From Candidatus Poribacteria bacterium (GTDB lineage Bacteria; Poribacteria; WGA-4E; WGA-3G): a DNA stretch of 64,000 nt. Position numbers and translations under genes: made by a program. The notes below the pieces were generated by a model. That model searched no databases, was not told the DNA's origin, and worked only from the letters and a program-made list of their open reading frames with translations. The stretch spans positions 62,001 through 126,000 of the forward strand of contig JAJECK010000051.1 of the NCBI GenBank assembly GCA_022822085.1, in the 5' to 3' direction. Shown here piece by piece: positions 1,884-6,669 of the stretch. Positions within the stretch are counted from its first letter, which is position 1. Every line of letters begins with the position of its first letter.

Positions 1884-3053
1884 ATGCCAAAATTGGACAT
1901 ACGCGAACTTTACTACATTACGCACATAGACAATCTCCCATCCATCCTTGCGCGCGGGGTTTTGTCTCACGCAAAGATGGAAGCAGAAGGCGTACATTCT
2001 ACACCTATCTATGATGCGGATATAGTCAGCAGACGCAACCACATAACGACTCCTGACACAAAGAGGCATTGGTCTTATGCTAATCTCTATTTCCAACCAC
2101 GGAACGCTATGATGTATCGCGTTGTCCATGAAATTGAACCAAAAAATCTTGCTGTTATAGGTATCAATAAAAGTGTATTAAATGAACAAGATGTTTTTAT
2201 CACAGATGGAAACGCCGCGCATGAGACAACACAATTTTTCTATCCTTCCAAAGGATTGGAAATCTTAAGACAACAGTGGTCAATAATTCGGAACGATTGG
2301 TGGAATAGAGATGACGGATCCAAGCGAAAAATTATGGCAGAATGTCTAATTCCAAGGCACATTAAACCTGAATACATTCAATCTGTTTATGTAGCAGGTA
2401 ATTCAGTACGAGATATCGCTCAGGAAAAAGTTGGAAATTCCGATGTTACCGTTAGTTCTGAACCAGACATGTTTTTCCAACCATACAGTCGGACAAGAGT
2501 AGGAGACAATATTTCACTCATTGATGGAGATGTGTTCTTCTCAAACCTACAGACATTAACAATTAGCGTGAATCTACAAGGAATTATGGGAAAAGGATTA
2601 GCCTCACGTGCCAAATACCAATTCCCCGATGTCTATGTAGCATACCAGGATGTGTGTCGGGCAAAACGAATCACAGCGACAAAACCTTATCTCTACAAAC
2701 GCGAAAGTTCTTTAGACGAGGAATTGGCTGATGTAGGTGCGCCGCTTGTCGCTCCCAATGCCGTCAAGTGGTTCCTGCTTTTCGCAACGAAACGGTATTG
2801 GAAAGACAATTCACGTTTAGATGATATTGAAGGCGGTCTTGCCTGGGTTCGGGACAATTTTCAAAAGGAAGGAATTCAATCTCTCGCAATGCCTGCCCTC
2901 GGTTGTGGGTTGGGAGGTTTGGATTGGAAAGAGGTTGGTCCCTTGATGTGTAAATATCTGCACGGTATTAATATTTCAGTCGCAATCTATCTGCCACGGG
3001 AACATCAAATTGAGTTACAATATAAAACAGCATCATATCTACTATCACTTTAA
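1884..3053 (+). CDS. DarT (DUF4433 DNA ADP-ribosyltransferase) fused to DarG-type macrodomain in one ORF
   Basis: N-term YYITHIDNLPSILARGVLSH, YFQPRNAMMY, TDGNAA, KIMAECLIP match DarT; C-term DGDVFF, NLQGIMGKGLASRAK, PALGCGLGGLDW match DarG macrodomain. Confidence 0.85.
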   Translation: MPKLDIRELYYITHIDNLPSILARGVLSHAKMEAEGVHSTPIYDADIVSRRNHITTPDTKRHWSYANLYFQPRNAMMYRVVHEIEPKNLAVIGINKSVLNEQDVFITDGNAAHETTQFFYPSKGLEILRQQWSIIRNDWWNRDDGSKRKIMAECLIPRHIKPEYIQSVYVAGNSVRDIAQEKVGNSDVTVSSEPDMFFQPYSRTRVGDNISLIDGDVFFSNLQTLTISVNLQGIMGKGLASRAKYQFPDVYVAYQDVCRAKRITATKPYLYKRESSLDEELADVGAPLVAPNAVKWFLLFATKRYWKDNSRLDDIEGGLAWVRDNFQKEGIQSLAMPALGCGLGGLDWKEVGPLMCKYLHGINISVAIYLPREHQIELQYKTASYLLSL

Positions 3054-3099: not shown

Positions 3100-6000
3100 A
3101 TGAACCAAACACCATCACAAAACAACGGGGTAAACCTACCTCCACGAATGCAAAAAGCATTAGAACAATACAAAAAACGGGTATGGATCATCAAACTTGC
3201 GGAAGGCACATTAGCAGCGATCTTTGGGCTCATCGTTTCATATCTCATCGTGTTTGGCTTAGAACGACTGATTGATACCCCAGCACCCCTGCGCGCGCTC
3301 ATCCTAATAGTTGGAATGGTCGGGACGGTAATTTTCCTGCCGCTGAAATACTACAACTGGGTCTGGCGAAATCGACAATTAGAAGGTATTGCCAAGCTAT
3401 TGCAACATAAGTTCCCACGTTTTGGTGATCATGTGCTCGGCATCGTAGAACTCGCCTCAGAAAGATCTGACCAATCGTCAAGTCCTGCACTGGTTGCAGC
3501 CGCTATGCGTCAAGTTGATGAAGAAGTGGCAAAACACAATCTCAAAGATGCTGTGCCGAATCCGAGACATCGTCGTTGGGCAATAGCAGTAGGTCTACCC
3601 CTACTCCTTGTTATCATTGGGGTAATCATTATTCCGGCAACGACTGGCAACACTCTTGCGCGATGGTTGACTCCATGGCGAAACGTTGAACGATGGACAT
3701 TTGCCCAATTGAAAGGCAAACCGGATCCACGCGTCGTTGCCTACGCAGAACCCTTTGATGTTGAAGCTCAGTTGAAAGATGAATCCCCATGGAAACCTGA
3801 AACCGGTGAAGCACGATACGCAAAACAAGAACCTGTAGTTGCAGAACGAGATGGGGCTACTTATAAATTTCAATTGCCACCGCAAACAGAGGAAGGAAAA
3901 ATCAAGATGCGGGTAGGAGATGCAAGACGTTCCATTCCCGTTGAACCAAAATTGCGCCCGGCACTCAAAGAACTTATTGCCAACGTTCAGCTCCCCGATT
4001 ATCTACAACGCGAAGAACCGAGAATAGACGATGTACGTGGTGGAATAGTGAGTTTAGTGAAAGGTAGTACTGCCACCTTGGAAGCGACAATTACACGAGA
4101 ACTCTCTGAAGCAACGTTAAATGAACGGCCGCAAAAAATAGAAGGAGAAAAAATAACAACAGAACCGATTGCCGTCCAAAAAACGACAGAGATGGCGTTA
4201 ACATGGCGGGATCACTATGGACTTGCAGCGAGTGAACCTCAGGTAGTGCAGTTTGAACTACAAGAAGACGCAGAACCAACCATTGCTATTACCAAACTAA
4301 AAAACAATCAGGTTGTGCTTTCTACAGAAGTGCTCACATTTGAGATTCAGTCGGCAGATGATTTTGGTGTGAAACAGGTCGGTATAGAATGGGAAGGTAT
4401 TGAGAACCCAATCCAAAACCCTGAACCTGCAATCGGTGAGAAAACCGTGTCCTCAGGGTCGCCTATATCGGAATCACTCATCGTGCCAGCGACATTCTCC
4501 GTTGAACGAGAAAATGTTCCACCACAGAGCCTACGTCTGCGTGCTTTTGCAGAAGATTATTTTCCTAACCGCGAACGTGTCCGTTCACCACAGATAGTGC
4601 TGCATGTGCTTTCCCCGTCAGAACATTTCAAGTGGTTAATCGGACAGATGCAGCTCTGGGCAGGTGCAGCAAAGGACGTACACGACAAAGAATTGCAATT
4701 ACACCAAACCAATCGTGAACTGCAAGACCTGCCCCCCGAAGCACTTGACGATCCAGCACAACGTAAAAAATTGCAGGAACAAGCCGCTGCAGAACGTGCT
4801 AACGCAGCAAAACTTGATAGCCTCATTGATAGCGGTAAAGAGTTGGTGCAAGAAGCAGCAAAAAACAGTGAGTTTGACGCGGAACAACTACAATCTTGGG
4901 GAGATATGCTCAAACAATTAGAGGAGATAGCCGGAAAGCAGATGCCTTCTGTCGCAAATTTACTCGCACAAGCATCCGAAGCCCCAGGACAGAGCAGTCA
5001 GAAGCCATCAGACAGCAGCCAGCAAAGTCCATCTTCTCCAAGTAGTAGTCCTAGTCAACAATCACCAAGCGAAAACCAAGGAGAACAGCAGCAAAACCAA
5101 GCATCAAACGGAAAATCGCAACAGTCTGACCAACAACAGAAAGATGCAGAACAACAGCAAAACCAAGCATCAGGTGATAAATCACAATCCTCTGGTAAAC
5201 CGCAGGAAGGTTCAGGAGATGATACAAAGAAATATGGACCCGATAGTTTCGTGCCACCTGAAGGGACAGACGAGGATGCTGAGGATCCTGAAGACCCAAA
5301 CAAACGTCCCGATTCTGTCAGTGTGAACCGGAGTAAACCACCACAAGGTGGGGAACAAGGTAAACCTTCACCTACGAATCCCACACCAGGACTTTCAGAT
5401 GTAGAATCGGGTTTCAACAAACCTGACAAGCCAAGTGACGCACCACCATCACAAGTTGTTGGCGGGTTAGCCATCCCTAATACGACTTTGATGGGAAGTG
5501 GCAGAGAAGATCAAGGTGAAGATGAAAACACTGAAACACCACCTGCGGAAGAACTCGTGGTACAGGCTGTTGAAGAACAGAAGGAATTGTTGGACGCTTT
5601 CGCTAAACTATCAGACGAGATGAAAAAACTTCTGGTCAGTTTTGAAAATAGTACATTCGTGAAACGGTTGAAAGCAGCCTCACGAAAACAGATTGACATC
5701 GCAGCTGATCTCAACAAAATTGATACCTTTGGGCTTTCTGACAGAGGCACAAAAAATCAAGATGTCCGAAAACGTTTAGCTGAAATGGAATCCAATGAAT
5801 CCAAGAAGGTAACCACCATCATACAAGATATGGCAGCTTATACTGATCGTCGTCCTAATGATAATTACCTACGTGTCCTTGCTGAGATGGAAGACGCTTC
5901 TGTATCAAACCAGATGCGCGAACTTGTTAGATCAATTAACAGGAATTATGTCGGACAATCAACGATTGAAGCAGAATACTGGGCGGATACTTTGGATCGA

Positions 6001-6669
6001 TGGGCAGAACAGTTAGTAGACCCATTACCGGATGGAGAATGTCCCCCAGGTGGAATGATGGAGTTGCCAAGTCTACCCCCTGAAATTGTCCTTGAGGTAT
6101 TACGTATCATCAATCGCGAGATTCAATTAAGAGAGGAAACGCGCGAAACGGAGAACGCAAAGGGCACTCTCAATTCCGATAAATATTATGAGCGAAGTGA
6201 AGGATTGAGCGATACACAATATGAAATCGCCGAGGATACACTTGAGATAGCAAGACAAATCAGTCTATTGCCAGAAGCGAATACACCACGTATCAGGCAG
6301 CAATACGCTAAAGTCGCTATGGCAGCAGAAGTTATGGAGGAAGCGGAAACAATCCTTGCCCAACCTAACACCGGTCCCGAAGCTATCGCAGCCATATCAG
6401 AAGTAATAGAAATCCTCCTTCAAACACAACGCGTTCCAAATACACCTGGTAGCGGCGGTGGTGGCGGTGACACACCAGGAGGTAGCGGTAATGTCTTTGC
6501 ACAATTAGTTTCCGCTATGGCACTCGGAAGTGGTAGCGGCGACGACTCCGGTGAGGTATTCATTGAAAAACGCTCTCCTAAACAAGCAATAGGAAAAACA
6601 GGGCGCGTCCTACCTGAAGAATTCCGACAAGGTTTAGACGCATATTTCAACGTTTTAGAGGGGAACTAA
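3100..6669 (+). CDS. DUF4175-like large membrane protein with Q/S-rich linker
   Basis: ATG at 3100 preceded by AAAGGAGAATATTA; two N-terminal TM helices, TM helix near residue 160, long helical C-term; ORF track starts 30 aa too early. Confidence 0.65.
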   Translation: MNQTPSQNNGVNLPPRMQKALEQYKKRVWIIKLAEGTLAAIFGLIVSYLIVFGLERLIDTPAPLRALILIVGMVGTVIFLPLKYYNWVWRNRQLEGIAKLLQHKFPRFGDHVLGIVELASERSDQSSSPALVAAAMRQVDEEVAKHNLKDAVPNPRHRRWAIAVGLPLLLVIIGVIIIPATTGNTLARWLTPWRNVERWTFAQLKGKPDPRVVAYAEPFDVEAQLKDESPWKPETGEARYAKQEPVVAERDGATYKFQLPPQTEEGKIKMRVGDARRSIPVEPKLRPALKELIANVQLPDYLQREEPRIDDVRGGIVSLVKGSTATLEATITRELSEATLNERPQKIEGEKITTEPIAVQKTTEMALTWRDHYGLAASEPQVVQFELQEDAEPTIAITKLKNNQVVLSTEVLTFEIQSADDFGVKQVGIEWEGIENPIQNPEPAIGEKTVSSGSPISESLIVPATFSVERENVPPQSLRLRAFAEDYFPNRERVRSPQIVLHVLSPSEHFKWLIGQMQLWAGAAKDVHDKELQLHQTNRELQDLPPEALDDPAQRKKLQEQAAAERANAAKLDSLIDSGKELVQEAAKNSEFDAEQLQSWGDMLKQLEEIAGKQMPSVANLLAQASEAPGQSSQKPSDSSQQSPSSPSSSPSQQSPSENQGEQQQNQASNGKSQQSDQQQKDAEQQQNQASGDKSQSSGKPQEGSGDDTKKYGPDSFVPPEGTDEDAEDPEDPNKRPDSVSVNRSKPPQGGEQGKPSPTNPTPGLSDVESGFNKPDKPSDAPPSQVVGGLAIPNTTLMGSGREDQGEDENTETPPAEELVVQAVEEQKELLDAFAKLSDEMKKLLVSFENSTFVKRLKAASRKQIDIAADLNKIDTFGLSDRGTKNQDVRKRLAEMESNESKKVTTIIQDMAAYTDRRPNDNYLRVLAEMEDASVSNQMRELVRSINRNYVGQSTIEAEYWADTLDRWAEQLVDPLPDGECPPGGMMELPSLPPEIVLEVLRIINREIQLREETRETENAKGTLNSDKYYERSEGLSDTQYEIAEDTLEIARQISLLPEANTPRIRQQYAKVAMAAEVMEEAETILAQPNTGPEAIAAISEVIEILLQTQRVPNTPGSGGGGGDTPGGSGNVFAQLVSAMALGSGSGDDSGEVFIEKRSPKQAIGKTGRVLPEEFRQGLDAYFNVLEGN

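What the first reader, a model, noticed from the sequence alone, without database searches (positions are those of the whole stretch)
1884..3053. DarT toxin and DarG macrodomain antitoxin fused in one polypeptide
The ORF carries DarT motifs in its N-terminal half (including the KIMAECLI region likely to hold the catalytic Glu) and DarG macrodomain motifs in its C-terminal half. DarTG is normally two adjacent genes. Here toxin and antitoxin are covalently joined, in the native order, and the macrodomain lacks the extra C-terminal region of classical DarG. A covalent antitoxin could not be freed by selective degradation, so activation would need another trigger, such as proteolysis, phage inhibition, or ligand binding at the macrodomain.
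Basis: partly seen in the sequence, partly recalled or inferred. Interest (0 to 1): 0.7.

Follow-up and report, generated by a model that had tools for sequence, protein, structure and literature searches.

The report
Fused DarT-DarG toxin-antitoxin protein
One gene in a Poribacteria genome encodes a DNA-modifying toxin and the enzyme that undoes the modification joined in a single protein; the joining is real, but the same kind of fused protein already has a solved crystal structure (Thermosipho africanus DarTG, 2021), so this is a new member of a known kind.

Summary
Window 1884-3053 (+) is one intact 389-aa ORF with a DarT domain (10-198) and a DarG-type macrodomain (210-377), in that order, without DarG's C-terminal domain. 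Catalytic Glu153 and Lys303 are conserved. It is not an assembly artefact: about 30 relatives are fused across Candidatus Poribacteria, including one in a single-contig genome, and both halves are under purifying selection. The novelty claim fails. PDB 7OMU, "Thermosipho africanus DarTG in complex with ADP-ribose" (2021), is one chain aligning end to end (about 50% identity). A template-free AlphaFold model of the window protein matches the whole chain, TM 0.89/0.92. New here is population-level context. The gene sits in a variable site between two conserved genes; in the genus that site is empty, holds a decayed DarTG, or holds DarTG beside restriction-modification genes. Elsewhere in the phylum a free second DarT stands in front of the fusion, and in one clade the macrodomain stands alone. 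Best reading: a self-reversing thymidine ADP-ribosyltransferase acting as an accessory defence or toxin-antitoxin module. No activity, toxicity or phage effect was tested.

The parts
1884..3053 (+). Fused DarT-DarG(macrodomain) ORF, 389 aa
   Evidence: ORF listing; Pfam/PADLOC/NCBIfam hits; end-to-end match to 7OMU; alignment of relatives A1
1911..2477 (+). DarT domain (residues 10-198)
   Evidence: PF14487 E=2e-46; AlphaFold model matches Thermus DarT 7omv, TM 0.78 by target length
2340..2342 (+). Codon of E153, predicted catalytic Glu of DarT (MAEC motif)
   Evidence: Aligned with position 160 of Thermus DarT, which is Ala in the E160A crystal construct; E in 28 of 29 fusions; the 7OMU chain has Ala here
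2511..3014 (+). DarG-type macrodomain (residues 210-377)
   Evidence: PADLOC DarG E=1.4e-41; AlphaFold model matches the T. aquaticus DarG macrodomain 5m3e, TM 0.92 by target length
2790..2792 (+). Codon of K303, equivalent of DarG catalytic K80
   Evidence: Aligned with the FPTK lysine of T. aquaticus DarG (tag offset inferred); invariant in 29 of 29 fusions; K80 essential in T. aquaticus DarG (PMC7003065)
150..1865 (+). Left flank of the variable site: VWA/CARDB-type gene (its start may lie before the window)
   Evidence: Pfam CARDB/VWA; conserved across the genus next to empty or occupied sites
3100..6669 (+). Right flank of the variable site: large conserved gene, no Pfam hit
   Evidence: directly follows the VWA gene (80-159 bp gap) in G033, G035, G043, G044

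Best explanation
The gene encodes a bifunctional, self-reversing DNA ADP-ribosylation enzyme of the DarTG2 kind. [quoted passage not shown] the C-terminal macrodomain would remove it. The net mark depends on the balance of the two activities, so uninfected cells survive while large amounts of exposed single-stranded DNA, as in phage replication, could outrun removal. Shown here: architecture, conserved catalytic residues, purifying selection on both halves, variable occupancy of the insertion site, restriction-modification neighbours in some relatives. Inferred from characterised homologues: chemistry, thymidine target, toxicity, phage defence. The kinetic-balance step is my inference. The fusion is the same kind as the solved Thermosipho africanus DarTG.
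For: DarT and DarG profile matches. End-to-end match to 7OMU, 'Thermosipho africanus DarTG in complex with ADP-ribose', E=5e-128, 50% identity; TM 0.89/0.92 over 382 columns. E153 in 28 of 29 and K303 in 29 of 29 fusions. dN/dS well below 1 in both halves. Variable site: of 18 genomes of the genus, 8 carry the fusion, 4 have an 80-159 bp gap, 2 hold remnants, 4 differ otherwise. Neighbours in relatives: type III methylase and restriction enzyme (L072), HSDR_N protein (L004). A PD-Lambda-4_A-like gene lies just before the window. The EPEC DarG macrodomain alone neutralises DarT (PMC7003065).
Against: No activity, toxicity or phage data for this protein. The DarT half is only distantly related to the biochemically characterised Thermus and M. 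tuberculosis DarT (about 20% identity). H119 of Thermus DarT corresponds to N110 here (also N in the M. tuberculosis DarT alignment), so target base and sequence motif are not certain. The DarG C-terminal, toxin-sequestering domain is absent. The gene lies 18 bp behind a conserved gene with no promoter signal above chance, so it may be expressed constitutively with it.
Confidence: 0.78

Rival explanations
1. A housekeeping or regulatory DNA ADP-ribosylation switch (for example of replication or growth) rather than a defence module; the fusion sets a steady low level of modification.
For: Strong purifying selection on both halves. DarTG is reported to control replication and gene expression in M. 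tuberculosis (PMC12170906, title and abstract). The gene sits tightly between conserved co-directional genes.
Against: Presence/absence variation and decayed remnants within one genus, neighbouring restriction-modification genes in relatives, DarT found in only about half of the phylum's genomes.
Confidence: 0.15
2. One half has been repurposed or inactivated, so the protein acts mainly as a macrodomain (antitoxin, immunity) or mainly as a transferase.
For: A clade of five genomes keeps only the macrodomain; G060 has Gly at the catalytic Glu.
Against: In the window protein E153, R51, N110 and K303 are all present, and both halves have low dN/dS in its own clade.
Confidence: 0.07

Closest known systems
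Thermosipho africanus DarTG, PDB 7OMU (released 2021-06-23)
   Same: Single chain, DarT then macrodomain, no C-terminal DarG domain; 50% identity end to end (41% DarT half, 61% macro half); whole-chain TM 0.89/0.92 to a template-free model.
   Different: Different phylum; the crystallised chain has Ala at the catalytic Glu position, read here as an engineered inactive mutant. The accompanying paper was not held, so what it says of the fusion could not be checked.
Two-gene DarTG2 (Thermus, EPEC, M. tuberculosis)
   Same: DarT toxin followed by DarG macrodomain; catalytic Glu and Lys conserved.
   Different: Two genes, and EPEC DarG has an extra C-terminal domain that binds DarT (PMC7003065). 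A two-gene pair also exists in Poribacteria G004 (L171).
DarTG1 (DarT1-NADAR)
   Same: DarT-fold transferase with a reversing enzyme.
   Different: The antitoxin is NADAR, not a macrodomain; guanine target (PMC11543638). Present as separate loci in the same phylum.
PARP14
   Same: Transferase and reversing macrodomain in one polypeptide (PMC10499325).
   Different: Eukaryotic, acts on protein and nucleic acid substrates; analogy only.

Membership tests
Fused DarTG (7OMU type) | DarT and DarG macrodomain in one ORF, in that order | tested here: met
Fused DarTG (7OMU type) | Same relative arrangement of the two domains | tested here: met
   Whole-chain TM 0.89/0.92, rmsd 2.5 over 382 columns, template-free model of mean pLDDT 88.6
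DarTG2 | DarT domain with catalytic Glu | tested here: met
   E153 = E160 of Thermus DarT
DarTG2 | DarG macrodomain with catalytic Lys (K80) | tested here: met
   K303, invariant
DarTG2 | Toxin and antitoxin as two adjacent genes | tested here: not met
   One ORF; gene order is kept within the ORF. Hence filed as the fused variant, not as a classical two-gene pair
DarTG2 | DarG C-terminal DarT-binding domain | tested here: not met
   Match ends at profile position 151 of 329; 12 residues follow
DarTG2 | ADP-ribosylation of thymidine in ssDNA and its reversal; toxicity neutralised by the macrodomain | not testable with these tools
   Needs biochemistry
DarTG1 | NADAR antitoxin | tested here: not met
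   No NADAR domain in the ORF; second half is a macrodomain

The most novel reading that the evidence does not exclude
In Poribacteria the fused protein is one state of a modular series at shared chromosomal sites: fusion alone, free DarT plus fusion, macrodomain alone, remnants. In the tandem loci the only visible antitoxin for the free DarT is the macrodomain locked to a second DarT, so a fused antitoxin would control a free toxin in trans; and the toxin half can be lost while the antitoxin persists.
Probability: 0.4. Interest if true: 0.45.

Novelty: new member of a known kind. Interest (0 to 1): 0.28.

Why it matters
It shows that covalent toxin-antitoxin joining of DarTG is not a curiosity of one thermophile: it is widespread, conserved and under selection in the phylum Poribacteria. 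The natural series of fused, free-toxin and antitoxin-only forms at shared sites offers a way to ask how a toxin-antitoxin pair works when the antitoxin cannot be degraded separately.

Tried and rejected
Guanine specificity by analogy with DarT1 N104: N110 lies where Thermus DarT has H119, but the M. tuberculosis DarT alignment also has N there, so N is not diagnostic; dropped. Phage record MT837167 as a fused phage copy: rejected, its match spans two ORFs. Streptomyces globosus plasmid as a fusion: two genes. G012 macrodomain as an orphan: rejected, it starts at base 1 of a contig, so truncation is likely. First AlphaFold model (29 close relatives) had a poor macro half, mean pLDDT 67; replaced by a 53-sequence alignment, 88.6. 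A text description of the fusion was sought in papers: none found in the held library; the Nature 2021 paper is not held. Promoter scan: not above chance.

Full report
Observation. The ORF at window 1884-3053 (+) is real and intact. Pfam places DarT at residues 10-198 and Macro at 302-352; PADLOC places DarT at 7-198 and DarG at 210-377, the latter ending at profile position 151 of 329, so the C-terminal DarG region is missing. NCBIfam DarT and DarG models match below their cut-offs, as expected for a divergent fused form.

Prior knowledge. The best solved relative is 7OMU, one 406-residue chain aligned from residue 6 to 377 at E=5e-128, named 'Thermosipho africanus DarTG in complex with ADP-ribose', released 2021-06-23. 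Identity is 50% overall, 41% in the DarT half and 61% in the macro half. A template-free AlphaFold model from 53 sequences (mean pLDDT 88.6) superposes on the whole 7OMU chain with TM 0.89/0.92 and 2.5 A over 382 columns; thus not only the folds but also the arrangement of the two domains agrees. An earlier model from 29 close relatives was poor in the macro half. The paper that presumably accompanies 7OMU is not held, and no held paper was found that discusses the natural fusion; that the structure comes from Schuller et al. 2021 rests on my memory and on the neighbouring PDB codes.

Catalytic residues. E153 aligns with position 160 of Thermus DarT, which is Ala in the E160A crystal construct. 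K303 aligns with the lysine taken as K80 of T. aquaticus DarG, allowing for a ten-residue tag (inferred offset). Across 29 fusions E153 is Glu in 28 (Gly in G060) and K303 is Lys in all. Position 110, equivalent to H119 of Thermus DarT, is Asn in 23 of 29.

Distribution. Named relatives are all Candidatus Poribacteria. In the phylum 42 of 85 genomes have a DarT match. Full-length fused frames occur in about 30 loci. Pairwise dN/dS is 0.06-0.19 for the DarT half and 0.05-0.12 for the macro half. A 54%-identical fusion on a contig classified as viral (L108) is followed by a methylase-like gene resembling type III Mod (methylase by sequence reading only).

Insertion site. In the window the fusion lies 18 bp after the VWA-type gene and 46 bp before the next conserved gene. 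Of 18 genomes of the genus, eight carry the fusion at or near this site (in G042 about 7 kb from the VWA gene with type III restriction-modification genes between), four have a gap of only 80-159 bp (G033, G035, G043, G044), two hold a remnant (G045, 71 residues with a stop; G036, 33 residues), and four have other contents (G032, G034, G037, G039). G046 has an HSDR_N protein and G030 a T5orf172 protein beside the fusion. This is the pattern of an accessory, repeatedly gained or lost module.

Modular variants. At a second site in a related genus, beside a conserved roughly 700-aa gene, different genomes carry the fusion, a free DarT followed by a fusion, or a macrodomain alone. DNA on both sides of the macrodomain-only copy in G082 aligns at about 82% with G047, which has the fusion; about 640 nt including the DarT half in G047 correspond to about 90 nt in G082. 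The five macrodomain-only copies form one supported clade (98/91) placed among fusions, though the fork joining them to particular fusions is weak (87/71). This favours loss of the toxin half from a fusion. Nine of the free DarTs form a clade (100/100) and keep the catalytic Glu (the ninth, G038, was in the tree only). L010 pairs a DarT half of the window type with a macro half of the other type, suggesting exchange between halves. The window's own genome also holds a free DarT plus fusion pair on contig C117.

Mechanism. Best supported: a self-reversing thymidine ADP-ribosyltransferase. Architecture, residues, selection and context are shown; chemistry, target, toxicity and defence are inferred from homologues. 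The EPEC DarG macrodomain alone removes the mark and suffices against DarT in vivo (PMC7003065), so the missing C-terminal domain is no obstacle. A single polypeptide with both activities has a eukaryotic precedent in PARP14 (PMC10499325). Whether activation needs a special trigger is open; a kinetic balance is the simplest alternative and is my inference.

Verdict. Real, well conserved, same kind as a solved protein: a new member of a known kind, of modest interest, with the modular series as its most novel aspect.

Noticed in passing
L002:1471-3407 (window's own genome, contig C117): A free DarT (217 aa) directly followed by a second DarT-DarG fusion (403 aa); the same tandem recurs in several Poribacteria.
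   Followed up: partly
L162, L164-L167 (G082, G048, G076, G071, G077): Stand-alone macrodomain genes, 74-80% identical to the fused macro half, at the site where relatives carry the fusion; toxin half missing.
   Followed up: partly
L091:739-2985 (-) (G029): A 748-aa frame with a macrodomain, then DarT, then NADAR-DarT1: two kinds of reversing domain in one frame with a DarT.
   Followed up: no
L088:1825-4722 (G014): A 965-aa frame with two DarT domains followed by sigma-70 regions 1.2-4, next to a NADAR gene; could be a misassembly.
   Followed up: no
L099:1839-2885 (-) (G035): A frame with an SSB domain followed by DarT, next to a gene that by eye resembles the NADAR partner.
   Followed up: no
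L089:2182-4770 (-) and similar loci: Long WD40-repeat proteins with a C-terminal DarT, each beside a NADAR-DarT1-like gene.
   Followed up: no
L107:2808-6635 (G000:C22, just before the window): A 1275-aa gene matching PADLOC PD-Lambda-4_A (E=1.4e-28), inserted before the VWA gene; a similar 1272-aa frame lies in G034 (L081).
   Followed up: no
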